Shown one piece after another: positions 9,486-28,537 of a stretch of DNA of 51,849 nt (position 1 is the stretch's first letter; the number at the start of each line of letters is the position of its first letter). Under the pieces are notes generated by a model. The model worked only from the letters and a program-made list of their open reading frames with translations. It made no database searches and was not told the DNA's origin. The position numbers and the translations under genes are program-made. The stretch lies in the NCBI GenBank assembly GCA_013289145.1, contig JABDAM010000008.1, positions 1 through 51,849 of the forward strand. Reading direction: 5' to 3'. This stretch comes from Alphaproteobacteria bacterium (lineage in GTDB: Bacteria > Pseudomonadota > Alphaproteobacteria > UBA11073).

Positions 9486-9491
9486 CTTATG

Positions 9492-9520
9492 ACTATAGTC
9501 CTAGTAGGAATAAATGTCAA
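9492..9520 (-). promoter_or_regulatory. Strong sigma-70 promoter of the small RNA
   Basis: Read on the minus strand: TTGACA (9515-9520), exactly 17 bases, then TATAGT (9492-9497). This is a perfect -35 and five of six matches at -10. Confidence 0.8.
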
Positions 9521-9661
9521 GCATTATTTTTCCTCCCCCTGGAGGGGGGTAGGAAGATAGGGGCAAGGCACTTTATCAGAAAAGTGCGGAACAATCCCAT
9601 GCACCTGGGAAATTCGGGGAAATCTGGCAAGAAAGTTGCGCTGTCGAGTAATATTATATTC

Positions 9662-10897
9662 TTATCTTGCTTTCACCACACCGCGGGCGGCGGATTCCAG
9701 GGCTTCGCCGGGGGTGATCGTCACTTTGGGAATAAGGCGCAAACGGTGGAGCAGCGCGAGCCATAAAGGCGTGCAAACCAGGCTGAGCGAGATCACCGCC
9801 AGAACATATTTATGCGCGCCGTCATCCAGGGAGCCGTCGGCGATACCCATCCCGGCGAGGAGGAAGGAAAATTCGCCGAGCTGTCCGGTGACGGCGCCGG
9901 CCAGCCAGGCGTCTGGCGCGGGAACTTTTTGCAGGCGCAAGACCGCGACGTTCAGCAAAGTTTTTAACATCAAAGCGCCGATGACAAGGCCCGCCACCGT
10001 CAGCCAATGCGCGATGATGAAATGCAGATCGATCAAAAGGCCGACGGAGAGAAAAAACACCATGATGAGCAAATCGAAAACAGGGCGCGTGTTTTTCTGT
10101 ACCTTTTCACGCGATCGCGTGCGGCTGAGCATCAGGCCCGCAAGGAAGGCGCCATAAGCGGCGGAAAACCCCAGCGCCCCCGCCAATGCCGCGCCGGTGA
10201 AACAGACGGCCAGGGCGGTGATGGTGGTTTGCCCCTTCATGGCTTTGGCCTTGACGCGCGCGAATTTGCGGCCCCAGTGCATGAACCATTGCGGCTGTTC
10301 GGACAGCAGCCACATCACGGCGGCAAGGATCAGCAGACCGGCGATGAGTTTCACCAAGCCCATCAGGTTCACCGTGCCGCCCATGCGCATCGCGCCCAGG
10401 ATCAGCATCATCGGCACGACGGAAATATCCTGGGCGATTAAAATCCCCATGCTGACGGCGCCGCCATGGGTGCGTTTGGCATCCATTTCCTCCAGCACTT
10501 TTAACGCGACGGCGGTTGATGAGACGGCGATACAGCAGCCGAGCAAAAAGGCGGTTTTAAACGGCCAGCCGGTAATAAAGCCGACGCCGTACATCACGCC
10601 CACGCCGACGGCGATTTGAATAAGGGTGGTAACGACGGCGGGCCGCGCCACCGCCCGGAATTGCGACAGATCCATTTCAAGGCCGATGTAAAACATCAGC
10701 AATAGGATGCCGAGTTCAGCAAGCCATTGAATGTCGTCCGCATTTTCCACCAGGCCCAGGCCCGCGGGACCGAAAATCGTACCCACCAGGATATAGCCGA
10801 TCAGCACCGGCTGCCGCAGTTGGCGCAGCAGCGCGCCGCCCAAAAAGGCGGCGGCGAGGATCATCGCCAGATCGTTGAGTTCCGCGGTGGATTGCAT
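9662..10897 (-). CDS. KefB-type monovalent cation:proton antiporter (CPA2), membrane domain only
   Basis: 411 residues, almost entirely hydrophobic, with about 11-12 membrane segments. Family landmarks include RQPVLIGYILVGTIFGPAGLGLV near the N-terminus, GLEMDLSQF, LGCCIAVSSTAVALKVL, LIAQDISVVPMMLILGAM (the ion-binding QD) and GQLGEFSFLLAGMG. There is no C-terminal TrkA-N nucleotide-binding domain, so it is the short CPA2 type. It would exchange K+ or Na+ for protons at the inner membrane. The ATG at 10895-10897 fits the family start. It diverges from the 516-aa gene with about 108 bases between. Confidence 0.85.
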   Translation of the reverse strand: MQSTAELNDLAMILAAAFLGGALLRQLRQPVLIGYILVGTIFGPAGLGLVENADDIQWLAELGILLLMFYIGLEMDLSQFRAVARPAVVTTLIQIAVGVGVMYGVGFITGWPFKTAFLLGCCIAVSSTAVALKVLEEMDAKRTHGGAVSMGILIAQDISVVPMMLILGAMRMGGTVNLMGLVKLIAGLLILAAVMWLLSEQPQWFMHWGRKFARVKAKAMKGQTTITALAVCFTGAALAGALGFSAAYGAFLAGLMLSRTRSREKVQKNTRPVFDLLIMVFFLSVGLLIDLHFIIAHWLTVAGLVIGALMLKTLLNVAVLRLQKVPAPDAWLAGAVTGQLGEFSFLLAGMGIADGSLDDGAHKYVLAVISLSLVCTPLWLALLHRLRLIPKVTITPGEALESAARGVVKAR

Positions 10898-11005: not shown

Positions 11006-12556
11006 ATGACAAGCGTAGCTCCTAATACTCCAAGTCAAAAAGAAATTATCATTGCGGAAAGGCGTAAACGCCTGTTGGGGCGCTATGTTCCCAAGGAGCT
11101 GTTCGACCAGGTGTGCTTGGCCTTGGTCGTAACGGATTTCCCCGGCGGTCTGCGGGAGGCGATCAAACAGGTTCCGGATAATCTGCCCGAGCGTGAAGTT
11201 ACATTTTTTGCGCCTGATACGGGCATAGATTTTCGCTTTGAACTGCAAGAGTATACGGCAACCATGCCGCGTGATGGCCGTTATGTGGATTTCATTTTGT
11301 TTAAGCCTACCCACGAAGCTGTTGCTGGTTTCGGTCTTGTGAAGGACACTTGGGTGACTTTGCCTGCGGCAAAAATATTGCCGCCCCTTACGGTTCCGGC
11401 GGGAAAACAAAAACTAGCTAAATTGTTTAAGGGCGAGATTGATTGGTCCAATCATGTTATCAGCCTCGATCAATTGAGCAAAGATTATGCCGATGCCGCC
11501 CTCCGTGAATTGTCGTCTATCAAGATCCAGAGGTCCGCGCTGCCAAAATTCCCGACGCTTGAGGTGCTGGCCAAACAGGAGGTTGGAAAAGAACAGGAGG
11601 CTGGAAAAGATGCGAAGCCCGGTAATCCTGCGGAACCGGATGTATTTCACACTGCCTGCGTGCGTGTGGTTTTGCATAAGAAAAACGGTCTTCCCGATTT
11701 GAGCAAGCCGCAACGCTACTATATGAGAATTGTTCCTGGAGAAAAATATACCGCCGAGAAATTGCAAGCGGCTTTGGACGGCGCAAAGAAAGGCGTGTAT
11801 CCCTTTATTCACATTTCTCATTTACCCAATAGTGATGCCGAGCCTCAGCCTGATGAAGCGCGGAATTTCTCCCAGTCGATGTTTGAAGCCGTCATGCCTG
11901 AACTGCTAGAGGCTTTCGGAAAATATGCCGAAGGAGAAAAAAATACCTTGCAAAATGTCGGGGCCAAGATTTCGGCGAAGGGTATAGTAAGGAGCCGGCG
12001 TGCCGCGCAGTCTAGGGCCAAGGAAACGGTGGCGGAAGATTTGCCGGTTGTTCCAGTTGCTCCGGAGCCGGAAATTACGCCCGCGGTTGAAGCTGTTGAG
12101 GCGCCCGCCGCGGATTCCGTGCATGATATCGTTCATAACGCCGCCGCTCCGGCTGTGGCCGAAACGCCCGTGCCGGGCATCCGCATGGGGCGTCCGTGGG
12201 GCCCGGATGAAAGCAAGGCTTGTTTATCTTTTATCGTGCATAATCAGGAAGGTGGCCTGACGGAGGCTAAGCAGACGGGTGCTATCATGGCCTATGGATT
12301 GCCGCAGACGCCGGATGTGCTGAAAGCATGTTTTACAACGGTTCAGACAGCAGCCGGTAAAAATAAACAGGCTTATTGCGACGTGTTTATCTGGCAGCCC
12401 GGCCAGCAGGAATTCACGCCGGAGACGCGGATTGCCGCCAATCTGGCGACAGCAAGACTGGATATGGAACGTGGATCGTTGATAGACAGGATTGCCAAGG
12501 CTTTTCCTGTTCCTGAAGGTCTTGGAAAAGGTTTGACGTCGTCACCGAAGCCATAA
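11006..12556 (+). CDS. Unknown 516-aa protein with three similar segments
   Basis: Not recognised. No signal peptide or membrane segments. Three stretches begin alike: CLALVVTDFPGGLREA (~37), CVRVVLHKKNGLPDL (~220) and CLSFIVHNQEGGLTEA (~410). Each is followed by beta-rich sequence ending in a C/YxDxxxxxP-like strand (VDFILFKP, CDVFIWQP), which suggests a small domain repeated three times. A charged linker rich in K/E (~190-205) and an Ala/Pro/Glu linker (~350-400) separate them. The start is supported by GAGG before the ATG and a promoter upstream. It stands alone between the divergent antiporter and the rRNA operon. A soluble multi-domain binding protein is all that can be inferred. Confidence 0.75.
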   Translation: MTSVAPNTPSQKEIIIAERRKRLLGRYVPKELFDQVCLALVVTDFPGGLREAIKQVPDNLPEREVTFFAPDTGIDFRFELQEYTATMPRDGRYVDFILFKPTHEAVAGFGLVKDTWVTLPAAKILPPLTVPAGKQKLAKLFKGEIDWSNHVISLDQLSKDYADAALRELSSIKIQRSALPKFPTLEVLAKQEVGKEQEAGKDAKPGNPAEPDVFHTACVRVVLHKKNGLPDLSKPQRYYMRIVPGEKYTAEKLQAALDGAKKGVYPFIHISHLPNSDAEPQPDEARNFSQSMFEAVMPELLEAFGKYAEGEKNTLQNVGAKISAKGIVRSRRAAQSRAKETVAEDLPVVPVAPEPEITPAVEAVEAPAADSVHDIVHNAAAPAVAETPVPGIRMGRPWGPDESKACLSFIVHNQEGGLTEAKQTGAIMAYGLPQTPDVLKACFTTVQTAAGKNKQAYCDVFIWQPGQQEFTPETRIAANLATARLDMERGSLIDRIAKAFPVPEGLGKGLTSSPKP

Positions 12557-13083
12557 TTCCCGGGGTTTGCGGATTGCGTTCGGAGTGGTTTAAAAACAGG
12601 GTTTCTGTGGCTTTGCCGCCTGCCGAAAAAAAGTTGCTGAAAAGTTAAAAAAAGTGCTTGCAAAGTAAAAAACTCATAGCTATAAGCACGCTCTCGCAAG
12701 TGATGCGGCTCAGATGTTTCTTGACTTCGGTTGGGTGTTTGTGTTGTAATGCTTGTCCTTCTGGCAGATTCGGCTAGTCCAACTGAGATTTTTGATTTCA
12801 GTTCGTGGCTACTGCGCTGTCGGTTTGGTGTGATTCGGGTTGATTCGGAAAACACCGCGGTTCTTGTACAAGTCGTTTTGGATCCAATAGTCGTTGTCAA
12901 GGCGAGCTATTGGAAAAATGAAAAGATACACAGGCAGCAGGACATCCAACCCCTGTTGGGTGGTTTGGTGAAAAATAACACTAAATTAGCTGTACTGTGT
13001 TTTATTACGCAGTAAGAACAATGCCAATTTAGTTCAGAGATAACACGGATTGATGATCTCATTGTTGATCCGTTCAGTCTATC
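12557..13083 (+). other. rRNA operon promoter region and 16S leader, no gene
   Basis: This stretch of about 527 bases holds the rrn promoter (12658-12686) with an A-rich upstream region, and a roughly 390-base leader before 16S. Reading frames crossing it are short and lack coding character. I see no clear boxA in it. Confidence 0.7.
12658..12686 (+). promoter_or_regulatory. rRNA operon promoter
   Basis: TTGCAA (12658-12663), 17 bases, TATAAG (12681-12686). A-tract sequence from 12626 to 12654 resembles an UP element, and the bases after the -10 (cacgctctc) are GC-rich like the discriminator of stringently controlled promoters. Confidence 0.7.
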
Positions 13084-14564
<1,481 letters not shown>

Positions 14565-14667
14565 TAAATGAATTTGATCTTGTTCGCTTCGGCGGACATC
14601 AAATTCAAGAAAACAAATGCCAAACATTGCTTCGGCAATGACACTGCTGTCTGTGTATCTTTTCGTT

Positions 14668-14754
14668 GACTAAGGATTTTAGGAACTAGGAGTTTTAGGA
14701 GTTATAGGAATTTATTTTCCTAGTTCCTAAACTCCTAGTTCCTAGTTCCTACCA
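14668..14754. repeat. Large imperfect hairpin of TAGGA units in the 16S-23S spacer
   Basis: The left arm (taggaactaggagttttagg) and right arm (cctagttcctaaactcctag) pair over about 30 bases with a short AT loop. The arms are tandem 7-base units (taggaac, taggagt). It lies between the 16S 3' end and tRNA-Ala. Related wording is at 9237-9299. Confidence 0.7.
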
Positions 14755-14755
14755 A

Positions 14756-14831
14756 GGGGCCTTAGCTCAGCTGGTAGAGCGCCTGATTTGCATTCAGGAG
14801 GTCAGGAGTTCGAACCTCCTAGGCTCCACCA
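14756..14831 (+). tRNA. tRNA-Ala (anticodon TGC)
   Basis: 76 bases with encoded CCA. The acceptor stem GGGGCCT/AGGCTCC contains the G3-U70 wobble that marks alanine tRNAs. The anticodon loop is ttTGCat and the T-loop is GTTCGAA. It is the first tRNA in the rRNA spacer, where tRNA-Ile would normally come first. Confidence 0.97.
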
Positions 14832-14996
14832 GCCTTCGCGGTTGTTCTGCGAACAACCGCTTCGGCTCGGCAAGCCGTTTGTTCTAGGTGTGGAAGTTTC
14901 TGCGAGAACAAAGAAGGCTGTCGCGCCGTAGCTTTAGCGAAGGCGGACTGGAGACAATCATTGTTTCTTTATGACATACGAAACTATGTCATCGTG

Positions 14997-15254
14997 ATGT
15001 CCTCTGATTTTATGAAACTCTCGCTTTTGCCGACCTCGGATCAAGCTGAGCCGCAAACCTTTTTCGTCCGCGCGACGGAAATCGCCGCGATGTGCGATGA
15101 CGAAGGGAAAAAGGGAACGATCGTTTTCGCAAAGGGTGTTGATAAAGCCTTTCGCGTGACGCAAAGCCCGGATGAGATTTTAGCGATGATGCGTGACGAT
15201 AGCGCGAGTTTGCCGATGCGGCACCTGATGGAACAAAAAGCCATCGTGGCTTAA
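14997..15254 (+). CDS. Small hypothetical protein encoded between the two spacer tRNAs
   Basis: 85 residues from ATG 14997 (a second ATG at 15012 gives 80). The core reads FFVRATEIAAMC, then GTIVFAKGVDKAFRVTQSPDEILAMM. This has the look of a real small beta-rich domain (strand, short helix, two strands, helix), similar in layout to short FlbD-like proteins, though I cannot assign a family. No good ribosome-binding site precedes either ATG, so translation is uncertain. It would be co-transcribed with rRNA and released by processing at the flanking tRNAs. The composition is protein-like: charged, balanced, and ending with a stop 24 bases before tRNA-Ile. Confidence 0.55.
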   Translation: MSSDFMKLSLLPTSDQAEPQTFFVRATEIAAMCDDEGKKGTIVFAKGVDKAFRVTQSPDEILAMMRDDSASLPMRHLMEQKAIVA

Positions 15255-15278
15255 CAGATTTGGTGTAACCTCTGGTGA

Positions 15279-15355
15279 GGGCTTGTAGCTCAGTTGGTTA
15301 GAGCGCACGCTTGATAAGCGTGAGGTCGCAAGTTCAAGTCTTGCCAGGCCCACCA
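15279..15355 (+). tRNA. tRNA-Ile (anticodon GAT)
   Basis: 77 bases with encoded CCA. Acceptor stem GGGCTTG/CAGGCCC, anticodon stem cacgc/gcgtg with loop ttGATaa, and T-loop GTTCAAG. It is the second spacer tRNA, about 450 bases after tRNA-Ala. Confidence 0.97.
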
Positions 15356-15871
15356 ATCTTCGCTCGCGCAGCGAAGGGAAGATTGTCCGGCGTAGTTCGA
15401 AGAACGAAGACGGACTATACGACGCGCGAGCTACGCTTGGCGCAGCCATCCTGCACAAAAATAACAGAAGCTTGAAGAGAAAAACCAACTGGTTTTTCTC
15501 TTCAGTCTTTTGACTGAACGTCTGAACATTGTGAATAAGTTTGTTGCTGTCTGAAGTCTTTGCGGCGGTAGGTGGAATCTTTCCATTCTCCTATCGATCT
15601 GAGATGCGATGTCGTATCGCGTCTTTTAAAAACACAAAGACACAAAAGATGCCTTGTCTTCGTCCTAGCCGGGCGTGGGCAAATGGCATCAATTCAATTT
15701 ATATCGATTGTGATCGGAACCCTCTGATCATGATCGAAATACTGCTGAGAGTTCTTTCGGCCAGCTGAATGCAAGTTCAGTTAGTTGGAAAATAAATCTG
15801 TCCGTAGCAATACGGACTATATGTGACGCAAATAACGATAAGAGTTTATGCCTTTGCGTCTGCATGAATCT
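15356..15871 (+). other. Pre-23S spacer, no gene
   Basis: This stretch of 516 bases holds a hairpin-rich segment after tRNA-Ile, the left arm of the long 23S processing stem (15527-15553) and a second pairing arm just before 23S (15853-15865, matching 18693-18705). A segment resembling the sequence downstream of tRNA-Ala (ggcgtag...gaagacggact) repeats here. Frames antisense to the tRNA are not coding. Confidence 0.7.
15527..15553 (+). repeat. Left arm of the pre-23S processing stem
   Basis: 27 bases, CATTGTGAATAAGTTTG through GTCTG, perfectly complementary to 18786-18812. It brackets the 23S gene and would form the duplex cut by RNase III. Confidence 0.85.
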
Positions 15872-18650
<2,779 letters not shown>

Positions 18651-18785
18651 AGATTTCATCAGAGCTTTTTTGGTTTACCAAATGGGTTCTGAATGCAGAC
18701 GCAAATGCATGACATTTGCGCGAATTGTTCGGCAGTACATAAATTGAATAACAACTCTGGTTTTATGCCAGAGCGGGAAAACAAA

Positions 18786-18812
18786 CAGACAGCAACAAAC
18801 TTATTCACAATG
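18786..18812 (+). repeat. Right arm of the pre-23S processing stem
   Basis: 27 bases, the exact reverse complement of 15527-15553. It is followed immediately by the 5S flanking stem. Confidence 0.85.
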
Positions 18813-18834
18813 CATTCTTGAATGCAGTTGTGAC

Positions 18835-18952
18835 GACCTGGTGGTTATAGCGAACGTGCCACACCCGATCCCATCTCGAACTCGATGGTGAAACCGTTCA
18901 GCGCTGATGATACTATGTCTTAAGGCATGGGAAAGTAAGTCGCTGCCAGGTC
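18835..18952 (+). rRNA. rrf: 5S ribosomal RNA
   Basis: 118 bases. The terminal stem GACCTGG/CCAGGTC closes it, and it contains CCCGATCCCATCTCGAACTCG and CAGCGCTGATGATACTATG. A 12-base inverted pair (18820-18831 and 18956-18967) flanks it as a processing stem. Confidence 0.95.
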
Positions 18953-18970
18953 TTTACAACTGCATTCTCT

Positions 18971-18997
18971 AAAAAGCCCGCTTTTGGGCTTTTTTTA
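18971..18997 (+). terminator. Intrinsic terminator of the rRNA operon
   Basis: AAAAAGCCC, loop, GGGC followed by seven Ts. It lies 18 bases after the 5S gene. Confidence 0.9.
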
Positions 18998-19011
18998 TTT
19001 TCATATCCCCC

Positions 19012-19017
19012 TATAAT
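19012..19017 (+). promoter_or_regulatory. Consensus -10 hexamer just before the TIR gene
   Basis: TATAAT lies six bases before the ATG at 19024. If used, the mRNA would start at or very near the start codon (leaderless). I see no -35 at the right distance, and no ribosome-binding site fits between the two. Confidence 0.35.
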
Positions 19018-19023
19018 TCCTCC

Positions 19024-19767
19024 ATGAATGATGATGAATACGATGAATATACGGACGAGGCTGTTTTCATTACGAAAGGTCATCACAAGGGGCATATCGG
19101 GTATTGTGATGGTTTGGAAGGGCGTAAAGCTATCATCCACTTCGGCCATCTTTTTTTGACTGGCTATTTTGCTATCCCTCTTACATCCATTCGAATAGCT
19201 AGCATGAATGATCTTATGGAAAGATTATCAGATATTCAAAATAAATTGATGCGTCACAAGTATAGAACTGAACTCCTTGATGAAGAAGAACAAATCGATC
19301 TCCTGCATGAGCTTTATTTTATCTTTACGAAAGCTAGTGATAGGCACTTTTTTGAAGCCTTTAAGCAATCTCCGGATCGGCCCAAGAAAATCTTTCTTTC
19401 CCATGCTTCGCCGGATAAAGGCTATGTGCGAAGAGTTTATAATGATTTAATAAACAGAGGCTATGGTGTCTGGCTGGATGAATATGAAATTAAAGCAGGT
19501 GAAAGTATTCCGTCTAAAATACAGCAAGGTATTACGGAATGTGAGCATGTTATTGTCTTCTTATCCAAAAATTCCGTTAAGTCATCCTGGGTTGAGACGG
19601 AGTGGATGGCCAAGTTCCATAAAGAAATTGCTTCAGGAAAAAATGCTGTTATTACAGCTTTAATTCAGGAATGTGAAATTCCTCTTCTTTTGCAAAATAA
19701 AAAATATGCGAATTTTGTTGAAGGATATAATGATGGGTTATTGGATATTTTAAGAGCAATAGAATAA
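19024..19767 (+). CDS. TIR-domain protein with an N-terminal KOW/SH3-like domain
   Basis: 247 residues. Residues ~12-60 look like a small beta barrel (VFITKGHHKGHIGYCDG, then AIIHFG and YFAIPLTSI). A charged helical linker follows, then a TIR domain from ~121: KKIFLSHASPDKGYVRRVYN, GYGVWLDEYEIKAGESIPSKI and HVIVFLSKNSVKSSWVETEW. The W189-V-E-T-E193 spacing matches the catalytic Glu position of NAD-cleaving TIR enzymes (WVxxE in SARM1), so an NADase role, as in bacterial anti-phage TIR systems, is plausible. It is strongly AT-rich compared with neighbours. It sits directly after the rRNA terminator and is followed by a decayed 5S copy. No obvious second component (SIR2, Thoeris, Argonaute or STING partner) is adjacent. 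Confidence 0.85.
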   Translation: MNDDEYDEYTDEAVFITKGHHKGHIGYCDGLEGRKAIIHFGHLFLTGYFAIPLTSIRIASMNDLMERLSDIQNKLMRHKYRTELLDEEEQIDLLHELYFIFTKASDRHFFEAFKQSPDRPKKIFLSHASPDKGYVRRVYNDLINRGYGVWLDEYEIKAGESIPSKIQQGITECEHVIVFLSKNSVKSSWVETEWMAKFHKEIASGKNAVITALIQECEIPLLLQNKKYANFVEGYNDGLLDILRAIE

Positions 19768-19789
19768 TCCCTTAGGTTGATATCTTTTA

Positions 19790-19880
19790 AGTTGGGGATT
19801 TTAGCGACCATGTCACACCCGATCCCATCTCGAACTCTTGGCGCGACTGCTCAGCGCTGATGATATTATAGATTGAACTC
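19790..19880 (+). pseudogene. Degenerate partial 5S rRNA copy
   Basis: The core cacacccgatcccatctcg at ~19813-19831 is identical to the intact 5S. The flanks tttagcgaccatgt and cagcgctgatgatatta align to ttatagcgaacgtg and cagcgctgatgatacta. Helix partners are lost and the 3' third is replaced, so it cannot fold as 5S. A short tatag/ctata stem followed by GTTTTT lies at its 3' side. Confidence 0.8.
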
Positions 19881-20093
19881 TATAGTTTTTGGTCCAGATT
19901 GATTGACTGGAAGGCTCGGTGTTTCTTTGAGGATGAGCTCGGGTAATTGGACATAGCTATAGACTGGCAACTTTTTTCCATTAAGCGGCCATCCGGTTCC
20001 AGTATGAAATTTTGAATTTGCTATTTTATCTGCCAGCTCTTGAGAAGTGACAAATCCAAGAGGATGCCTCTTTTGGCGAAATGAGAATGGGGA
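19866..20093 (-). pseudogene. Open reading fragment without a start codon
   Basis: About 75 codons are open on the minus strand from a stop at 20094-20096 to TAA at 19866-19868. The peptide has protein-like content (HPLGFVTSQELADKIANSKF, then HTGTGWPLNGKKLPVYSYV) but no ATG, GTG or good TTG start. It overlaps the 5S copy at its 3' end. It is probably the tail of a lost gene; no family recognised. Confidence 0.4.
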
Positions 20094-20179
20094 TTAATGG
20101 TAGTCCCGTCATGTCAGCAGGGCCGGGGATGAATTTCAATTATAGCAGCGGCCAATACGAACCTGACTTCGGTTTTTAA
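20081..20179 (+). CDS. Short ORF or gene tail ending before a terminator
   Basis: 32 residues from ATG 20081; the frame is open ten more codons upstream to a TGA. The peptide contains MRMGINGSP and ends NFNYSSGQYEPDFGF. An intrinsic terminator four bases after the stop suggests that a real gene once ended here. The MR-x-G and GQY[DE] wording recalls the end of the small exported protein at 51450-51728 (MRLGL, GQYDN). It may be a truncated relative. Confidence 0.35.
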   Translation: MRMGINGSPVMSAGPGMNFNYSSGQYEPDFGF

Positions 20180-20182
20180 ACA

Positions 20183-20204
20183 ACCCGCTCCAGGACGGGT
20201 TTTT
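20183..20204 (+). terminator. Intrinsic terminator
   Basis: ACCCG, eight-base loop, CGGGT followed by a run of five Ts. It isolates the histidine phosphatase gene from upstream transcription. Confidence 0.75.
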
Positions 20205-20205
20205 A

Positions 20206-20913
20206 TTGATTTTAAAGTCCGAACTGTTATTGAATGGCGCCGTGCTTGATGAATTTGACATTTTAACCTGGCGCCATGGCCAGACGGTTTTGGGCGCGGA
20301 TGGCCGTTTTGCGGGCTCGAATGATACGCCTTTGACCGAAAAAGGGAGGGCGGAGGCGACGCAAGTTGCGGAAGTGATCTGTCATTTACCCAAAGAACAA
20401 TGGCCGCAGGCCTTATTTAAAACAAAACGCGAACGCACGCGTCAAAGCGCGGAACCTGTGAAAGAAATGCTTGCCGAACGCGGGCATCGCATTGAAATTC
20501 TAACGGCGCCGGAATTTAATGAACGCGGATTAGGCGAATGGGAGGGGCAGAAAAAGAAAGAATGCCCGGCCGGTTCGGATCAAACGCGCGGTCAACTTTA
20601 TCTGACAGGCGTCACGCCGCCGGGCGGCCAAAGCGCGGAAGCGCATATTGAACAAATCCTGCAAGGCCTTCAAAAGCATGAAACAATATTCGCGAATAAA
20701 CGCTGCGCGATTTCCTGGCATGGCGGTTGTATGCGCGCGTTATTGTTTTTATGCGGATATGATGATCAAATCGAGGAAATACCGAACGGCCAGGTTTTCC
20801 ATTTCACGCGGCGGTGCGGCGGGCAAGCCGGCGTGGAAGTTTTGCAATTGGCTGGCGGTAAAATTATGAAAACCACGCCCTATGCAATGACGACAGGCGT
20901 TTGCCGTTTATAG
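20206..20913 (+). CDS. Histidine phosphatase (phosphoglycerate-mutase-like) family protein
   Basis: 235 residues if the TTG at 20206 is used. That codon overlaps the terminator T-run, so TTG 20230 or GTG 20242 may be the true start. The catalytic RHG motif is in ILTWRHGQTV, followed by NDTPLTEKGRAEA, the acidic residue in EFNERGLGEWEG and the second catalytic His in SWHGGCMRALL. This is a full branch-1 set, so the enzyme should be an active phosphatase or mutase using a phospho-histidine intermediate. The substrate is not predictable. It runs in the same direction as the membrane-anchored unknown gene 45 bases downstream. Confidence 0.8.
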   Translation: MILKSELLLNGAVLDEFDILTWRHGQTVLGADGRFAGSNDTPLTEKGRAEATQVAEVICHLPKEQWPQALFKTKRERTRQSAEPVKEMLAERGHRIEILTAPEFNERGLGEWEGQKKKECPAGSDQTRGQLYLTGVTPPGGQSAEAHIEQILQGLQKHETIFANKRCAISWHGGCMRALLFLCGYDDQIEEIPNGQVFHFTRRCGGQAGVEVLQLAGGKIMKTTPYAMTTGVCRL

Positions 20914-20958
20914 TTTCTGAGATTTTATATATTATGGTCCCGCCTAGGAGGAAATGAG

Positions 20959-21537
20959 GTGAACTGGCTGGATATCGTGAAAATGGCGGTCGGTGCGGGG
21001 ATTGTGACGACGCTGCTCGGCCAGTGCATTGAATGGCTGCGCGAGGCCGGGGCGGACAAACGCAAAACCTCGCGCATCGCGCGTTATTCCGCCGTGCGCA
21101 TCGCGGTGGTGTTGGAACAATTCGCCATTCACTGTGCGGAACTCATCAGCAACCGTAAACTTTATTACAGCACGGGCGGCGCGGCTGGAAAGGTTGATAC
21201 GAAAATCCCCGCACTGTTGCCTTATCCCGATGATGTTGGATGGAATGCGCTGGAGATTTCATGGGTGGCGCGCGCCTTGATGCTGCGGAACGAAATCATG
21301 ATGGCGCAGCAGGAGATTGATTTCTGGTACGATCTGGATTGGGAGGCCATGCCCGATACGGTTGATATGCAATCTGGCAAATGCGGTTATCTGGCCTGGC
21401 GGCTCGCGGCCGATTTGCGGGAATATTACCGCTTGCCGCTTTATCATCCCGGGGAAACGTCATGGGATGCCATTGGTCTGTTAGAACCGTATTATCGTGA
21501 CGCGCTGGCGGGAAAGAAAAAGGCGCAAAGCGGTTGA
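20959..21537 (+). CDS. Hypothetical membrane-anchored protein
   Basis: 192 residues starting at GTG 20959, which is preceded by a strong AGGAGG site (20946-20951). The N-terminus (WLDIVKMAVGAGIVTTLLGQ) is a short hydrophobic segment that could anchor it in the inner membrane, followed by a basic stretch REAGADKRKTSR and a soluble helical domain with many Trp/Tyr residues. No family recognised. The clear ribosome-binding site and balanced composition support a real gene. It may be co-transcribed with the phosphatase before it and the Ohr gene after it. Confidence 0.7.
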   Translation: MNWLDIVKMAVGAGIVTTLLGQCIEWLREAGADKRKTSRIARYSAVRIAVVLEQFAIHCAELISNRKLYYSTGGAAGKVDTKIPALLPYPDDVGWNALEISWVARALMLRNEIMMAQQEIDFWYDLDWEAMPDTVDMQSGKCGYLAWRLAADLREYYRLPLYHPGETSWDAIGLLEPYYRDALAGKKKAQSG

Positions 21538-21616
21538 AAACAATCCTATTTCCCCCTTGCCAAAGGGCGGAATCCGCCTAAATATACAACCTATGCGTGC
21601 GAATCTTGAGCGGCCC

Positions 21617-22057
21617 ATGAAAAATCTCCACACCGCTAAGGCACGGGCGGTGGGCGGCCGCGCGGGGGCAGTGCGGACGCCCACCGGCACGCTGTCTTTC
21701 CGCATGACGCCGGAGGAGCTGACGCCGCAGCAGTTCGGCACCAATCCCGAAGAACTATTCGCTTGCAGTTATGCCTCCTGTTTCAGCAATGCCGTCAGCA
21801 CGGCTGCGCAGTGGGAGGGCCTGACGCTGCCGCCCGTCGCCGTGATGGCTGAAGTCGGTTTGAATCAGGATCAGCGCGACGACAAGGATTATGCGCTGAG
21901 CGTGACATTGGACGTCGCGCTGCCGCGGCTGGACCGCGTTATGGCGGAAAAAATCGTTCAGACCGCGCATGACATCTGCCCTTGTTCCAAGGCGATGCGG
22001 GGCAATGTTGATCTGACCTTGACCATCAACCAAGAACCGCTCGCCAAGCCGGTATAA
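21617..22057 (+). CDS. Ohr/OsmC-family organic hydroperoxide reductase
   Basis: 146 residues from ATG 21617. The start MKNLHTAKARAVGGRAG matches family N-termini, whereas the open frame upstream runs through noncoding repeat-like sequence. Two redox cysteines are present: C55 in SYASCFSNA and C121 in CPCSKA, together with GTNPEELFA. Ohr proteins reduce organic peroxides through a Cys pair regenerated by lipoylated proteins in the cytosol. The extra Cys at 123 (CPCS instead of the common CPYS) is a small variation. No OhrR regulator is adjacent. Confidence 0.85.
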   Translation: MKNLHTAKARAVGGRAGAVRTPTGTLSFRMTPEELTPQQFGTNPEELFACSYASCFSNAVSTAAQWEGLTLPPVAVMAEVGLNQDQRDDKDYALSVTLDVALPRLDRVMAEKIVQTAHDICPCSKAMRGNVDLTLTINQEPLAKPV

Positions 22058-22096
22058 TCGGCTGACGCCGCGCGCGGTTTCTGTTATTTTGCGCGC

Positions 22097-22636
22097 ATGA
22101 CCATCGCCGCGCCGCCGGGCGTTTTTTCGATCACGCAGATTATCGGTTATGTGGCTTATGCCGTCACCATCGCGGCATTCTGGCAAAAGCGGGATCGGCG
22201 ATTGCTGCTGCTAAATGGGCTCGGTGCGTTATTTTGGACGGTACAATATATCATGCTTGGCGCATGGGCTGGCGCGGTGACCGAAGCCTTGGTCACCATG
22301 CGCTCCACCCTGTCGGCTTATATTACTGAGAAGAAACACCAACATCTTACCGCTGTGATATTTACGGCGGCGTTTCTGATCGGTGGTGTCCTAACGTATC
22401 GCCAATGGTATGATACTCTGACGATGGCGGCATGCATTGTTGGCACCATTTCCATGGTTTATTTGGAAAAAATTATGCTGCGCTGGGGGACGTTGCTGGC
22501 AGTGTCATTGTGGTTTGCCTATAATTTTTTCACAGGTTCCATCGGCGGCGCGCTGGCCGGAGCAACCTTGATCGCCACGCAGATTATGACGCTGGTGCGG
22601 ATGTACCGGGATAAGAAATTGGAGACTGCCGCATGA
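22097..22636 (+). CDS. YgjV-like inner membrane protein
   Basis: 179 residues with five to six hydrophobic helices: IIGYVAYAVTIAAFWQK at the N-terminus, a KRDRRLLLLNGLGALFWTVQY segment characteristic of the YgjV family, and a C-terminal MTLVRMYRDKK tail. Function in the family is unknown. Its 3' end overlaps pgsA by four bases (ATGA), so it is translationally coupled to phospholipid synthesis. Confidence 0.75.
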   Translation: MTIAAPPGVFSITQIIGYVAYAVTIAAFWQKRDRRLLLLNGLGALFWTVQYIMLGAWAGAVTEALVTMRSTLSAYITEKKHQHLTAVIFTAAFLIGGVLTYRQWYDTLTMAACIVGTISMVYLEKIMLRWGTLLAVSLWFAYNFFTGSIGGALAGATLIATQIMTLVRMYRDKKLETAA

Positions 22637-23217
22637 TTAATTTGATTACCTTATTACGCGTGATTTTGCTGGCGCCGCTGGTGTGGTTGCTGGTGACGGC
22701 TGGGAAATCCTGGGCGGTGGAGGGGATTTTTATCGCGGCTGGCATTAGCGATTGGGCGGACGGCTGGCTGGCGCGGCGGCTGGGGCAAACGTCGAAATTC
22801 GGCGCGATGCTGGATCAGATTTGCGATAAGATTTTTATTACCGGCACATTGGTTGCCATGGTCGCGGCCGGAATGTTTGGGAAGGCCATGATACGGGTGG
22901 CGCCGGTATTCCTTATTATCGCGCGGGAATTCGCCGTGTCGGGCTGGCGTGAATATGCGGCGCAAATGGGCCGCGCGGTGCCGGTTGATAAGCTTGGTAA
23001 AATTAAAACCATTACGCAGTTTGTCGCGATTGCATGCTGGCTATGTCCGCCGATTGCCGATGATCCTGATCCGCAATGGCTTCAGTCCGTGCAGATGTAT
23101 ATTGTGTTGATCGCTCTTTTTGGGCTGTGGCTTGCGGCCATTTTGGGGATTATCAGCGCGGTTAATTATTTCCGCGCGGGTGCGCAGAAAGTCCCCGTGA
23201 AATCTTCAGCGGAGTAG
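22633..23217 (+). CDS. pgsA: CDP-diacylglycerol--glycerol-3-phosphate 3-phosphatidyltransferase
   Basis: 194 residues, polytopic. The CDP-alcohol phosphatidyltransferase signature is complete: D40-x2-D43-G44-x2-A47-R48-x8-G57-x3-D61-x3-D65. The N-terminus MINLITLLRVILLAPLVWLL is typical of PgsA, and REFAVSGWREYAA fits the phosphatidylglycerol-phosphate synthase subfamily. It makes phosphatidylglycerophosphate from CDP-diacylglycerol at the inner membrane. Its stop lies inside the facing glycosyltransferase gene (12-base tail-to-tail overlap). Confidence 0.88.
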   Translation: MINLITLLRVILLAPLVWLLVTAGKSWAVEGIFIAAGISDWADGWLARRLGQTSKFGAMLDQICDKIFITGTLVAMVAAGMFGKAMIRVAPVFLIIAREFAVSGWREYAAQMGRAVPVDKLGKIKTITQFVAIACWLCPPIADDPDPQWLQSVQMYIVLIALFGLWLAAILGIISAVNYFRAGAQKVPVKSSAE

Positions 23218-24117
23218 GATTTCCTGTATCACTTCATCCGCGCGCAGATGGTTTAAATCATCACATTGAATGAAAGCGGTGCGCTCACCCACCGGGCGGG
23301 AACGCGCGGGCGAAGAATCGTTCGAAAACAAAGATAAACACGGCGCGGCGCAAGCGGCGATCAAATGCATCGGGCCGGTATCGTTGCCGATGGCTCCTGC
23401 CGCGCGGCGCGCCAGGGCGGCGATGTCGAACAGGTTGGTTTGGCCCGTCAGGTTTAGGGCGCCCGGCGCGAGCGCCGTGATTTCCGCATTAATATCCTTT
23501 TCCGCATCCGCGCCGATCAAAACGGGCGTAATGTTTTGTGATAACAGATGGCGGCAAACTTCGCCGTAACCCGCCGTAGTCCAGCGTTTGCGCGGCCGCG
23601 TGGGCGCGGCGCCGGCACAGATCAAAACAAATTTTTCCGGCAGGCCGTAACGCGCAATATCTGCATCCAGCCACGTCAAATCCGGAAAAGGCGTTTCAGA
23701 AATTCCAACCGCGCGCAATTCCTCGCGGCGCATGTCCCAGGCATGGAGTTTTTCCCAGGCGGGATCAGACGGTTTGCCGTGCCATTCCGGATAGGGGCCG
23801 GGGAAAAACAGTTGATAATAGAAACCTGTACGGTCGTTGGTTTGCAAATCATAAACGCGCGTGAAATTTCCGCCGCGCAGCCGGGCGCGCAATTTCATCC
23901 AGCCGCCGATATCAAAAAATTTCGGTTTGTCATCGATGACGATTTTATCAAACCAGCCGGAGCGTTTCGCCATTTCAACAAACGGTTTGGTTGTCAGCAA
24001 CGTAATATGCGCAGACGGATGGTGATGCCTAATGGCCGCAAACGCCGCGAAACACATGATAAAATCACCGAGGGCAGACAGCTTTACCACCAGGATTTTA
24101 TCGCGTGTCCTATTCAT
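23206..24117 (-). CDS. Glycosyltransferase family 9 (heptosyltransferase-like)
   Basis: 303 residues from ATG 24115-24117. The frame is open further upstream, but this Met precedes the conserved ILVVKLSALGDFIMCFAAF start of GT9 proteins and overlaps the upstream stop by ATGA. C-terminal landmarks are GAAPTRPRKRWTTAGYGEV and AIGNDTGPMHLIAACAAPCL. Presumed to add heptose or a related sugar to LPS core on the cytoplasmic side. It is coupled to a GT4 gene, forming a two-gene glycan unit. Confidence 0.83.
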   Translation of the reverse strand: MNRTRDKILVVKLSALGDFIMCFAAFAAIRHHHPSAHITLLTTKPFVEMAKRSGWFDKIVIDDKPKFFDIGGWMKLRARLRGGNFTRVYDLQTNDRTGFYYQLFFPGPYPEWHGKPSDPAWEKLHAWDMRREELRAVGISETPFPDLTWLDADIARYGLPEKFVLICAGAAPTRPRKRWTTAGYGEVCRHLLSQNITPVLIGADAEKDINAEITALAPGALNLTGQTNLFDIAALARRAAGAIGNDTGPMHLIAACAAPCLSLFSNDSSPARSRPVGERTAFIQCDDLNHLRADEVIQEILLR

Positions 24118-25301
24118 TCCACGTTTTCCGATAGTAGCTGATGATACAGCCCGATCGTCTGTTCGCACATATTCATTTTGGTGAAATTCTGCGCCACGTG
24201 TCCCATCGCGCGCGCGCCGATGACGCGGCGGGCTTCGTCGGAAACGCCCAGAGCTTCTGTCAAAGCGGCGGCGCACATTTCAACGTTATGCGGCGAAAAC
24301 AGCCAGCCTGTGCCATGCGGATCGGACAGGGGGATAATCGTTTCCGATGAACCGCCGTGACCCGATGCGACGATTAAGCGTCCCATGGCCTGTGCTTCCA
24401 CCGCGACGCGGCCAAAGGCTTCGGGGTCTTGGGAGGGCGAGACGACCACATCCGCGACGCGGTAGGCGGCGGGCATGTCATCGCATTCAGGCAGCAAGCG
24501 CACGCGGCCTTCGAGTTCCAGGGCGCTCACGCGCGCGGAGACTTCTTCGCGGTAACTGTGATGGCCGTGGTCGGAGCCCATCATCACGCAAAACCAGTTT
24601 TGTTCGCGGATTTTCGCCAGCGCGTCGAGCAAGAACAATTGACCTTTCCAGCGCGTAAAACGTCCGGGCAGCAGGATCAGCGGCACATGCTCAGGCACAT
24701 GCCAGGTGCGCAGGAGTTTGATGGATCGTTCATCCGATACGCGGTAAGGATCGAATTTCACCATATCGATGCCGCGCGGGATGACGGAGATTTTTTCCGG
24801 CGGCACGTGATATTCGCGCTGCATGTGGCCGGAAATGAAATTGGAAATGGCGATGATCTGTTCGCCCATCGTCATCACGCGGTTATAACGGCGTTTGATT
24901 TTGCCCCACACACCATCGCCTAGATTATAAGTGCCGTGAAACGTCGTGATAAAACGCACGGGCGATTTTTCTTTTTTCAATTTCTGCCAGGCGTGATACC
25001 CGGCCCAGGCCGGCGCGCGCGAACGGGCGTGAATGATGTCGATCTTATGCTCGCGCACGATTTTTTGAATCGCGCGCGCGTTGGCGGCGATCTGCCACGG
25101 CATCTTGCCGCCCAGCGGCAATTCGATATGCGTGGCGCCGGCGCGGTTCAATTCATGCACCATCGGCCCGCCCGCACTGGCGACATAGGCGCGGCAGCCG
25201 TTTTTCACCAATGCCGCCGCCACGTCCACCGTGCCGCGTTCGACGCCGCCCGAAATCAAGGCGGGCAGCAATTGCAGGATGGCCGGGGCTTCGCTAGTCA
25301 T
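24114..25301 (-). CDS. Glycosyltransferase family 4
   Basis: 395 residues. N-terminal ILQLLPALISGGVERGTVDVAAAL and IIHARSRAPAW; C-terminal donor domain with LILLPGRFTRWKGQLFLLDAL and SPSQDPEAFGRVAVEAQAMGR, which holds the E-x7-E motif. This is a retaining GT-B transferase, probably acting on an LPS core or capsule acceptor in the cytoplasm. The ATG has the divergent orphan region behind it and its stop couples to the GT9 gene. Confidence 0.84.
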   Translation of the reverse strand: MTSEAPAILQLLPALISGGVERGTVDVAAALVKNGCRAYVASAGGPMVHELNRAGATHIELPLGGKMPWQIAANARAIQKIVREHKIDIIHARSRAPAWAGYHAWQKLKKEKSPVRFITTFHGTYNLGDGVWGKIKRRYNRVMTMGEQIIAISNFISGHMQREYHVPPEKISVIPRGIDMVKFDPYRVSDERSIKLLRTWHVPEHVPLILLPGRFTRWKGQLFLLDALAKIREQNWFCVMMGSDHGHHSYREEVSARVSALELEGRVRLLPECDDMPAAYRVADVVVSPSQDPEAFGRVAVEAQAMGRLIVASGHGGSSETIIPLSDPHGTGWLFSPHNVEMCAAALTEALGVSDEARRVIGARAMGHVAQNFTKMNMCEQTIGLYHQLLSENVE

Positions 25302-25342
25302 TATAAAATGGCTAGCAGATGAATCCGCGAGGGGCGAGGGGG

Positions 25343-26284
25343 TTATTTGGGATTATAATCTGGAATGGTTATCGCAGCCACTTTATCCACCATATAGGGC
25401 GCATAATTAATAAGGCCGAATTTTTTCATCACGCCCCAGCTGATTGTTAAGGCAGCGATGTTTGCTAAGAATGAGGTGGGAGATAAACTGAGCATTAATA
25501 AAGGAACTTGGTACATCATCAGGGATTTTATCATGATATTAATGATATGGTTATTGTAAACTGCCCTATTTGCTGAACTTGTCCAGGCTTGCCGTGTTCC
25601 TGCCGCGCCTGCTTTTATGGATTCTTTGATGTCCTCGCCATCATAAATTTTCTTTCCGATAGATTTAAAAGATGCTTCGATTTGTTCTTCTGTAACAGAC
25701 GTTTTCAACTGGTCAGGTTGCAATATTTGTTTCCATTGATCTTGAAATTCCGCCAACGTTTGATTCTTCGTGTCCAAAAGCGGGGCATTTTTTTCTATTA
25801 AGGATATGGCTACAGCGGCTCTAGCATCGCCTTCCGCAATGTTTGAAAGAGCCGATAAAAGGCCTGTGAACAATATGGCGCATGCCGCATTCGCCAATGC
25901 ATTAGCCAGAATAGAATGTTTGAACTGACTATGACTATAAGCTAATCCTGCCATAAGGCTACATGCAGAGAGCATATTCGTTACAAAAAACCTCATTTGA
26001 CGTTTGTGCCGGATTTCATGCAGCAAAATTGATGGTAAATGATAATTTATGCCGTTATCAGGATCTAAAAGTAAAGGATGAATGAATATTCCACGCAGTG
26101 TTATTCCTCCAGCAGAATTTGCAACTTTTTTTAAAGAGATATCAGTATTTCGTCCTTGGTACAGAATTTTCTCTGCGCTTGGCGCGCCTTTCCAATAAGA
26201 CAGGGCTTCTTCGATAATAGCCTTTTGTTTTGTTGATGCGCGAATTTTCACAAAAGTCCTTAATTTCCACTCTATAGCTACCAC
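25343..26284 (-). CDS. Putative membrane zinc metallopeptidase (HExxH), AT-rich orphan
   Basis: 313 residues. H89-E-I-R-H93 in ILLHEIRHKRQ is a zinc-binding HExxH motif followed closely by basic residues. Hydrophobic segments occur at ~103-118, ~126-147 and near 255-285, so it is probably embedded in the inner membrane with the motif on the cytosolic face. The pattern recalls poorly described HExRH families, but I cannot name one with confidence. It is clearly more AT-rich than the flanking genes and lies between a glycosyltransferase gene and a divergent hydrolase gene that starts only 29 bases away. A third zinc ligand is not obvious. Confidence 0.65.
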   Translation of the reverse strand: MVAIEWKLRTFVKIRASTKQKAIIEEALSYWKGAPSAEKILYQGRNTDISLKKVANSAGGITLRGIFIHPLLLDPDNGINYHLPSILLHEIRHKRQMRFFVTNMLSACSLMAGLAYSHSQFKHSILANALANAACAILFTGLLSALSNIAEGDARAAVAISLIEKNAPLLDTKNQTLAEFQDQWKQILQPDQLKTSVTEEQIEASFKSIGKKIYDGEDIKESIKAGAAGTRQAWTSSANRAVYNNHIINIMIKSLMMYQVPLLMLSLSPTSFLANIAALTISWGVMKKFGLINYAPYMVDKVAAITIPDYNPK

Positions 26285-26313
26285 TTTGGGATCTTTTATG
26301 TCAAAGTTTTTTT

Positions 26314-27039
26314 ATGACAGATAGGGTTCGCGTTGTTAGTATGCGTCAGCCCGGCCGCGCGCCTGGCGTCATGTTCCTGCACGGTTTCAATTCCGATATG
26401 CAGGGCGGGAAGGCGACGGCGCTGGCGGAATATTGCGGCGAACGTGAGCAGGCCTTTATACGGTTTGATTGCCGCGCGCATGGGCGGTCGGCGGGGGATT
26501 TTGCGGATTTTACGATTGGCGGTGCGCTGGAAGATGCGCTGTATGTATTGGATCACCTGACAGAAGGGCCACAGATTTTGGTGGGCTCTTCGATGGGGGG
26601 ATGGCTGGCGTTTTTATTGGCGCTGACGCGGCCGGAGCGGGTGCGCGCGATTATCGGCCTCGCGCCCGCGCCGGATTTTACGGATCAGATTTATTTTGAT
26701 GATTTTAATGATGCACAGCGCGCGGAACTGGATGCGAAGGGCCGCGTGAATATACCGTCGCAATATGGCGGGGAATATTTGATCACGAAAAAATTAATTG
26801 ATGATGGGCGAAAGCATTTCGTCATGGATAAATTGGGACAGATCAAATGCCCGCTGCACATTCTGCACGGCCAGCAAGACGCGGACGTGAAATGGCAACA
26901 ATCACTGGACATCGCCGCGCGTTGGGGTTGCGATGATGTGCAGGTGAATTTGATTAAATCGGCGGGGCACCGCCTGTCCGAACCGGCGGAATTATTGTTG
27001 TTGCAGCATACCCTCACGCAATTGCTAGAGACGCCGTAA
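26314..27039 (+). CDS. Alpha/beta hydrolase
   Basis: 241 residues. FLHGFNSDMQGGKA forms the oxyanion region, S93 is the nucleophile in LVGSSMGGWLAF, Asp lies in HGQQDADVKW and His in SAGHRLSEP. The triad and size fit the ABHD10/YcfP-like group of small serine esterases or thioesterases. Cytosolic, no signal peptide. The gene is followed 33 bases on by a MaoC-type hydratase and then ribF, all on the plus strand. Confidence 0.82.
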   Translation: MTDRVRVVSMRQPGRAPGVMFLHGFNSDMQGGKATALAEYCGEREQAFIRFDCRAHGRSAGDFADFTIGGALEDALYVLDHLTEGPQILVGSSMGGWLAFLLALTRPERVRAIIGLAPAPDFTDQIYFDDFNDAQRAELDAKGRVNIPSQYGGEYLITKKLIDDGRKHFVMDKLGQIKCPLHILHGQQDADVKWQQSLDIAARWGCDDVQVNLIKSAGHRLSEPAELLLLQHTLTQLLETP

Positions 27040-27072
27040 ACGGATAAAATCCCATGATTCCAGAAGGATCCT

Positions 27073-27549
27073 ATGCCAGACGCCCAGCGCCCCAATACAT
27101 CCCACATCGAAGGTTACCGCCTTGAAGATATTAAGGTCGGCATGTCTGCCGCCTTTGCCAAGACGATTACGGAGGCGGATGTTTTGTTATTCGCGGGCGT
27201 ATCGGGCGATACCAATTCCATCCATGTGAACGAAGAATTCGCGCGCCGGACGCGGTTCGGGCGGCGGATTGCGCATGGCATGCTGTCGGCTTCGTTGATT
27301 TCCACCGCGTTGGGCAGCAAGTTGCCCGGCCCGGGCGCGATTTATCAATCACAAACTCTGAAATTCGTCGCGCCGGTCTATATGGGCGACACGGTGGAGG
27401 CGCGCGTGACCGTCGCCGAAATCAACCGCGAAAAACGCCGGATCGTGATGAGAACCGAATGCTGGGTCGGCGATAAACAGGTCGTGGTGGGTGAGGCGCT
27501 GATCTGGGTGCCGCCGCCTGAAGAAGAAGCGCGTTTGCGCAGCAGTTAA
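27073..27549 (+). CDS. MaoC-family (R)-specific enoyl-CoA hydratase
   Basis: 158 residues, a single hot-dog domain. The catalytic Asp46 and His51 are in SGDTNSIHVNEEFA, the hydratase-2 motif, and HGMLSASLISTALG follows. PhaJ-like enzymes hydrate trans-2-enoyl-CoA to (R)-3-hydroxyacyl-CoA, feeding polyhydroxyalkanoate or fatty acid pathways. An AAGGATCC stretch before the ATG serves as ribosome-binding site. The gene is four bases from the ribF start. Confidence 0.83.
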   Translation: MPDAQRPNTSHIEGYRLEDIKVGMSAAFAKTITEADVLLFAGVSGDTNSIHVNEEFARRTRFGRRIAHGMLSASLISTALGSKLPGPGAIYQSQTLKFVAPVYMGDTVEARVTVAEINREKRRIVMRTECWVGDKQVVVGEALIWVPPPEEEARLRSS

Positions 27550-27553
27550 CCGC

Positions 27554-28537
27554 ATGGTTCACGCACATATGGAAATGGCCCTGATGCCGCCGGTGATGCG
27601 GGTCTGGCCGGACTTGTCCGCCCTGCCGCCCGAGGCGAAAAATCTGGTCGTCGCCATCGGCAATTTTGACGGCGTGCATTTGGGGCACCAGGCCGTCATT
27701 TCCGCGGCCCAGCGCCAGGCGCGGGAATTGAATACGGGGTTGGCGGTGCTGATGTTTGCGCCCAATCCGCGCCAGTTTTTCGCGCCTGACGCGCCGCCCA
27801 GCGAGCTGACGCCGCTCCATACGCGCGCGCGTTATTTGTCGCTGTTGGGCGTGCAACAGCTTTATATCCAGAAATTTGATCTGACTTTTTCAAAACTCGA
27901 AGACATGGCCTTTATCGAAAAAGTTTTGGCGCAGCAGTTAGGCGCGCGCCACGTCGTCGTCGGTGAGAATTTTCATTTCGGCCATAAACGCCACGGCGAT
28001 GTGAATTTTCTGATTGATCAAAGCGCGCGCCTCGGCTTCGGCGTCACGCCCGTGCCGCCGGTGCGCATGACGAACGGGCAGGTTTATTCGTCAACGCGCG
28101 TGCGCGAATGTTTGCAACAGGGCGACGTTGCGGGCGCGCGCCAAATCCTGGGCCGTCCGTTTGAAATCGAAGGCACCGTGGAACGCGGCCAGGGCCTGGC
28201 GCGTGATTGGGGTTTTCCGACGGCGAATATGACGCTGGGAAATTACATCCGCCCGAAATACGGTGTTTACGCCGTGCGCGCGGCGTTGGTTGGTCCTGCC
28301 GCCGTGCCGGAATGGTTCGGCGGCGTGGCGAATTTGGGTGTGCGCCCGACGTTCCGGGGCGGCAACGAAGTTTTTGAAACACATTTGTTTGATTTCAAAG
28401 ACGACCTGTATGATCGCCGTTTGCGCGTGCAATTGTGGCATTACCTGCGGCCTGAGGAAAAATTCGGCAAAGCCGAAGCCCTGCGCGCGCAGATCACCAA
28501 GGACGCAGCGGATGCGCGGGCGCGGCTGGGCGGTTGA
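27554..28537 (+). CDS. ribF: Bifunctional riboflavin kinase/FAD synthetase
   Basis: Up to 327 residues; several in-frame ATGs near the start (27554, 27569, 27575, 27584, 27596) leave the N-terminus uncertain. The FAD synthetase domain shows VVAIGNFDGVHLGHQ and VVVGENFHFGHKRHGD with YSSTRVRECL. The riboflavin kinase domain shows GLARDWGFPTANM (PTAN motif), GVYAVRA and ETHLFDF. It converts riboflavin to FMN and then FAD. In many bacteria ribF precedes ileS, and here ileS follows after one inserted orphan on the other strand. Confidence 0.92.
   Translation: MVHAHMEMALMPPVMRVWPDLSALPPEAKNLVVAIGNFDGVHLGHQAVISAAQRQARELNTGLAVLMFAPNPRQFFAPDAPPSELTPLHTRARYLSLLGVQQLYIQKFDLTFSKLEDMAFIEKVLAQQLGARHVVVGENFHFGHKRHGDVNFLIDQSARLGFGVTPVPPVRMTNGQVYSSTRVRECLQQGDVAGARQILGRPFEIEGTVERGQGLARDWGFPTANMTLGNYIRPKYGVYAVRAALVGPAAVPEWFGGVANLGVRPTFRGGNEVFETHLFDFKDDLYDRRLRVQLWHYLRPEEKFGKAEALRAQITKDAADARARLGG

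What the first reader, a model, noticed from the sequence alone, without database searches (positions are those of the whole stretch)
18835..19880. TIR-domain gene enclosed between an intact 5S and a decayed 5S copy
The AT-rich TIR gene (19024-19767) lies between the true 5S gene and a degenerate 5S segment in the same orientation at ~19790-19880. Direct repeats of rRNA sequence on both sides suggest that the gene entered, or is held, by recombination at an rRNA operon end, a place not usually listed as a defence hotspot. The TIR domain keeps the WVxxE glutamate expected of an NADase, and the N-terminal KOW/SH3-like barrel could be a sensor. Expression next to the most active operon of the cell would need tight control, which fits a -10 hexamer without a -35.
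Basis: partly seen in the sequence, partly recalled or inferred. Interest (0 to 1): 0.75.

Follow-up and report, generated by a model that had tools for sequence, protein, structure and literature searches.

The report
AT-rich TIR gene beside 5S fragment
A probable bacterial anti-virus gene of foreign character sits just behind the only ribosomal RNA operon of an uncultured alphaproteobacterium and is followed by a broken piece of a 5S RNA gene; both parts are real, but each is of a known kind and the evidence speaks against the broken piece being an insertion scar.

Summary
After the 23S-5S end (5S 18837-18951) and its terminator (18971-18994) lies an intact TIR gene (19024-19767), then a 5S fragment in the same orientation (19793-19869). 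The fragment matches 5S nt 3-80 at 82% (E 1e-16), stops abruptly, and has lost the 3' third and several stems. Its nearest relative is this genome's own 5S. It is a pseudogene fragment, a kind already described at rRNA operon ends.

The TIR domain is solid (PF13676, 96 bits; E193 aligned with the WxxxE of crystallised NADase TIRs). The N-terminal part has no detectable relatives; 'KOW' is not supported. The gene has the lowest GC3 in the window (0.32, mean 0.62) and is absent from the one same-genus genome, where the flanks are colinear but the whole rRNA-TIR block is not at this place.

The distal repeat keeps the wrong end of 5S for simple site-specific integration, no integrase was found, 29 related 5S ends show no second copy, and 48 other TIR loci show no rRNA. 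Best reading: an accessory, probably defensive TIR gene next to an old 5S pseudogene, not a 5S-repeat hotspot. A second defence-candidate gene (PDC-S67) lies 1.2 kb downstream.

The parts
18837..18951 (+). intact 5S rRNA gene, the only complete copy found in this draft genome
   Evidence: Rfam RF00001 87 bits, full length; flanked by a 22-nt processing-stem inverted repeat 18820-18841/18946-18967
18971..18994 (+). intrinsic terminator of the rRNA operon, between 5S and the TIR gene
   Evidence: RNA fold z = -3.4
19012..19017 (+). TATAAT, possible -10 element 6 nt before the start codon, which would imply a leaderless mRNA (inference); no -35 match
   Evidence: sequence; no promoter pair
19024..19767 (+). 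TIR-domain protein, 247 aa: N-terminal region 1-118 without known relatives, TIR domain about 120-246, putative catalytic E193 in WVETE
   Evidence: PF13676 95.8 bits, residues 123-239; PADLOC PDC-S66 72.6 bits over 87-207; PDB best matches BtTIR 7uxr and AbTIR 7uwg/8g83; GC 0.37, GC3 0.32, lowest of the window's long ORFs
19793..19869 (+). 5S pseudogene fragment, nt 3-80 of 5S: 13 substitutions and one 1-nt deletion; 3' third absent
20239..20913 (+). histidine phosphatase (branch 1) gene, next gene downstream; the ORF may start at 20206
   Evidence: PF00300 82.6 bits
20959..21537 (+). PDC-S67-like gene, an uncharacterised candidate defence family; rare
   Evidence: PADLOC PDLC05063 68.8 bits over residues 13-176; found in no other of 135 relatives and in 10 of 329 genomes of the phylum including this one

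Best explanation
An accessory TIR gene of foreign composition, most likely a single-gene anti-phage NADase or NAD-derived signal synthase, lies in a variable block at the distal end of the only rRNA operon. The downstream 5S fragment is a truncated, decayed duplicate of the host lineage's own 5S (a 5S pseudogene) that became its neighbour, not a mobility site. The rRNA terminator insulates the gene from rRNA transcription, so it is probably transcribed weakly from its own promoter, perhaps as a leaderless mRNA. On infection, an unknown trigger read through the novel N-terminal region would let TIR domains assemble and cleave NAD+ through E193, halting phage growth. Shown: anatomy, homology, composition, terminator, absence from this place in the same-genus genome. 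Inferred: horizontal origin, promoter use, NADase activity, defence role, trigger.
For: TIR homology with E193 aligned to the WxxxE glutamate of BtTIR and AbTIR; lowest GC3 of the window; no TIR match in G001. Synteny with G001: window genes 1917-10897 and 21497-28537 are colinear on both sides, yet G001 has other genes next to OsmC and to the left Na+/H+ exchanger, and no rRNA there. 5S fragment: nearest to the host's own 5S (local score 84 against 55 for the next); several substitutions put states seen in none of 29 other 5S genes at positions invariant in all 29, and a base invariant in all 29 is deleted; stems broken; ends abrupt. Strong terminator before the TIR gene. Precedent: partial 5S pseudogenes behind the normal 5S at rRNA operon ends (PMC7812874). 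A second defence-candidate family, PDC-S67, is 1.2 kb downstream.
Against: No functional data. The N-terminal region is unexplained. PDC families are themselves unvalidated for the most part. Both genomes are incomplete drafts (70% and 75%), and G001 has no assembled 5S, so the empty site behind 5S itself was not seen. TIR domains also occur in proteins outside phage defence.
Confidence: 0.6

Rival explanations
1. One reading: the TIR gene entered by recombination or site-specific integration at the 5S end, and the two 5S segments are the flanking repeats (scar) of that event.
For: Same-orientation repeats flank the gene; the gene has foreign composition and is absent from this place in G001; plasmid-borne 5S fragments that could act as recombination donors are on record (PMC7812874).
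Against: The distal copy holds 5S nt 3-80 and no 3' third, whereas integration that displaces the 3' end of a gene leaves that 3' end at the far side. No integrase in the interval. No second 5S within up to 1.5 kb in 29 related 5S loci. No rRNA near 48 other TIR loci. The repeats differ by 18% while the TIR ORF is intact.
Confidence: 0.15
2. The fragment is the last remnant of a second rRNA operon or of an operon end lost by deletion between repeats, with the TIR gene lying between two former operons.
For: The host-like fragment is in operon orientation, and the rRNA block differs in place between G000 and G001.
Against: No 16S or 23S remnants near it; Rfam finds only one operon in the window.
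Confidence: 0.12
3. The fragment works as an RNA element in the 3' part of the TIR transcript, for example a 5S mimic that binds ribosomal proteins or controls mRNA stability.
For: It keeps an unbroken 24-nt block including the helix III/loop C region; run-length P = 0.047 by simulation. A weak hairpin followed by a T run ends the fragment.
Against: Helices I, IV and V are gone and further pairs break; folding is no better than shuffled sequence (z 0.30); no conservation data.
Confidence: 0.04
4. Assembly or binning artefact joining an rRNA end to foreign DNA.
For: rRNA operons are hard to assemble in draft metagenomes, and base composition shifts at the junction.
Against: Both flanks are colinear with the same-genus genome and are native in composition; only one rRNA operon is present, and the fragment is unique in the assembly.
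Confidence: 0.05

Closest known systems
Bacterial TIR NADases (AbTIR 7uwg/8g83, BtTIR 7uxr; Pfam TIR_2 PF13676)
   Same: TIR domain with the WxxxE glutamate and the W..DE....G.S motif
   Different: C-terminal TIR behind an N-terminal region (1-118) with no detectable relatives
PADLOC candidate family PDC-S66
   Same: 72.6 bits over the helical linker and TIR domain, residues 87-207
   Different: the model's first 114 positions do not match
5S rRNA pseudogenes at distal ends of rRNA operons (PMC7812874)
   Same: behind a normal 5S, after a terminator, lacking 5S ends
   Different: no large insertion in the core; a protein gene lies between; alphaproteobacterial
E. coli rrnD 5S-tRNA-Thr-5S (rrfD-thrV-rrfF)
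   Same: a gene enclosed by two 5S copies in one orientation
   Different: both 5S copies are annotated full-length genes (120 nt) and the enclosed gene is a tRNA

Membership tests
TIR domain proteins (PF13676) | profile score above the curated cut-off | tested here: met
   95.8 bits, cut-off 28
NADase-type TIR | glutamate at the catalytic WxxxE position | tested here: met
   W189/E193 align with the same motif in 7uxr and 7uwg; invariant among the 10 aligned proteins
NADase-type TIR | NAD+ cleavage or cADPR production | not testable with these tools
   needs an enzyme assay; the structure model was too poor to inspect the pocket (pLDDT 41.8)
Thoeris (ThsB) | ThsB profile over cut-off and a ThsA effector nearby | tested here: not met
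   PF08937 20.3 bits, below cut-off 21.2; type III ThcB4 31 against 220 bits; no ThsA among ten window proteins scanned, the four downstream genes 20206-22636 included
PDC-S66 | match over the whole model | tested here: not met
   model positions 115-235 of 282 only
KOW / SH3-like N-terminal domain | significant profile or fold match | tested here: inconclusive
   KOW5_SPT5 E 0.09 over 15 residues; no fold model of usable quality
5S pseudogene at an rRNA operon end (PMC7812874) | 5S-derived, lacks terminal parts, lies behind a normal 5S and after a terminator | tested here: met
5S pseudogene at an rRNA operon end (PMC7812874) | large insertion in the 5S-like core, as in the published set | tested here: not met
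   only a 1-nt deletion in the core
Genomic island integrated at an RNA gene end | the displaced 3' end of the gene at the far side of the insert | tested here: not met
   the far repeat holds nt 3-80; the 3' third is absent
Genomic island integrated at an RNA gene end | integrase in the element | tested here: not met
   the only recognisable gene between the repeats is the TIR gene; Pfam on neighbours shows none

The most novel reading that the evidence does not exclude
The distal end of the single rRNA operon is an acquisition site for defence genes in this lineage (TIR, then PDC-S67 1.2 kb on), with partial 5S copies as repeats left by recombination with incoming DNA carrying 5S homology; the N-terminal region of the TIR protein is a new sensor domain.
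Probability: 0.08. Interest if true: 0.65.

Novelty: new member of a known kind. Interest (0 to 1): 0.33.

Why it matters
If the TIR gene is a working single-gene defence system, its orphan N-terminal region could be a new phage-sensing module. A defence locus tied to an rRNA operon end would add an unusual address to the known defence hotspots, but the comparative evidence here does not show a recurrent hotspot.

Tried and rejected
TIR relatives by six-peptide scans of genome contigs and viral contigs: none. Host-specific 5S pattern in genome contigs, to find close relatives or empty sites: none. Foreign origin of the 5S fragment: rejected, nearest to the host 5S. N-terminal domain relatives: weak hits (E >= 0.002) that lie in unrelated frames, none carrying a TIR domain. 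Minus-strand 75-aa frame 19866-20093 as a gene remnant: no family and no relatives. Profile-based viral scans failed because the alignments were too diverse. Single-sequence AlphaFold model unusable, so no fold search was run. PDC-S67 relatives on plasmids show no TIR or defence neighbours by annotation; PDC-S67 loci in other genomes show no TIR or rRNA within 1.5 kb.

Full report
Observation. The window lies in a 1.42 Mb draft genome (60 contigs, about 70% complete) with one complete 5S gene found. It is alphaproteobacterial by inference: the best full-length 16S matches are alphaproteobacteria at 86%. The operon 16S-tRNA-Ala-tRNA-Ile-23S-5S runs 13084-18951. Behind it come a strong terminator (18971-18994), the TIR ORF 19024-19767, and a second 5S-like segment. 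That segment aligns to 5S nt 3-80 with 82% identity (13 substitutions, one deletion; E about 1e-16). On both sides similarity falls to chance at once.

What the fragment is. Among the intact 5S and 29 5S genes of other members of the class, the fragment is closest to the genome's own 5S (local score 84; next 55). Several of its substitutions replace bases invariant in all 29 with states seen in none of them, and another such base is deleted. It lost the partners of helices I, IV and V; of the remaining pairs some break and one is kept by a double change. It folds no better than shuffled sequence. This is neutral-looking decay of a host-lineage duplicate. Such partial 5S pseudogenes behind the normal 5S at operon ends, after terminators, were described in Firmicutes and Pseudoalteromonas (PMC7812874). 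Genes enclosed by two 5S copies are also known: E. coli rrnD is rrfD-thrV-rrfF.

What the gene is. Residues 123-239 are a clear TIR domain (PF13676, 95.8 bits). The best solved relatives are BtTIR and AbTIR, both NAD-cleaving enzymes (my knowledge of those proteins), and W189..E193 falls on their WxxxE motif. The glutamate is invariant in an alignment of 10 TIR proteins. Residues 1-118 have no family and no relatives in 398 genomes; the KOW hint is not significant. PADLOC's closest family is PDC-S66, a candidate defence family, matched only over the linker and TIR domain. The ORF has GC 0.37 and GC3 0.32 against a window mean of 0.62 (SD 0.10), the lowest of all long ORFs. TATAAT stands 6 nt before the ATG with no -35 match; a leaderless transcript would follow (inference).

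Is the 5S repeat an insertion scar? Several tests speak against it. For an element that integrates at 5S and displaces its 3' end, the far repeat should carry that 3' end; here it carries nt 3-80 and lacks the 3' third. The interval codes for no integrase. In 29 related 5S loci (flanks up to 1.5 kb; some cut at contig ends) no second 5S segment exists, and in the class-wide 5S search only this genome showed two neighbouring matches among those listed (at most two candidates per genome were scored, so this is a weak negative). None of 48 other TIR loci lies within 1.5 kb of rRNA.

Comparison with the sister genome. In the one same-genus genome (G001, 75% complete), window genes 1917-10897 are colinear in one contig and 21497-28537 in another. 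Both contigs run about 3 kb further towards the rRNA side with other genes (a PfkB-type kinase; a second Na+/H+ exchanger) and no rRNA. So the whole block 11006-21537, with the rRNA operon, TIR, 5S fragment, histidine phosphatase and PDC-S67-like gene, is not at this place there. TIR and PDC-S67 were not found in G001 at all, and only a distant relative of the phosphatase was (30%). The block is therefore variable, but the 5S fragment is not its boundary. Other AT-rich orphan genes (7188-7721, 25343-26284) also lack counterparts at the corresponding places in G001, so lone AT-rich inserts are not special to the rRNA end.

Mechanism. The most likely reading is a single-gene NADase-type TIR defence protein with its own weak promoter, insulated by the rRNA terminator, whose N-terminal region senses an unknown trigger and lets TIR domains assemble to consume NAD+. 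Anatomy and homology are shown; activity, trigger and defence role are inferred. The PDC-S67-like gene 1.2 kb downstream (68.8 bits; rare) is mild support for a small defence-rich block. Most PDC families lack experimental tests (PMC12988326, PMC12482510).

Verdict. The TIR gene is a new member of a known kind with an unassigned N-terminus; the 5S fragment is a known kind of pseudogene; a causal link between the two is unproven and on present evidence unlikely.

Noticed in passing
window 20959-21537 (+): Gene matching the candidate defence family PDC-S67 (68.8 bits), absent from 134 other relatives searched and present in 10 of 329 genomes of the phylum including this one; 1.2 kb behind the TIR gene with a histidine phosphatase gene between.
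   Followed up: partly
window 19866-20093 (-): An open 75-codon frame on the minus strand whose stop lies at the very edge of the 5S fragment; it reads like protein but has no relatives or family.
   Followed up: partly
window 7188-7721 (+), 25343-26284 (-), 42060-42551 (-): AT-rich orphan genes (GC 0.37-0.45 in a 0.57 window) without a clear family; for the first two, the corresponding interval in the same-genus genome lacks a counterpart. They look like lone accessory inserts.
   Followed up: partly
window 11006-21537 versus G001 contigs L151 and L210: The whole rRNA-operon block lies in a synteny break between two genomes of one genus; in the sister the flanking genes have other neighbours and no rRNA.
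   Followed up: partly
window 15527-15553 (-) and 18786-18812 (+): 27-nt perfect inverted repeat flanking 23S, probably its processing stem; a 22-nt inverted repeat likewise flanks 5S (18820-18841/18946-18967).
   Followed up: no
window 14756-14831 and 15279-15355: The spacer tRNAs are in the order Ala then Ile with about 450 nt between them, whereas Ile then Ala is the usual order (own knowledge).
   Followed up: no
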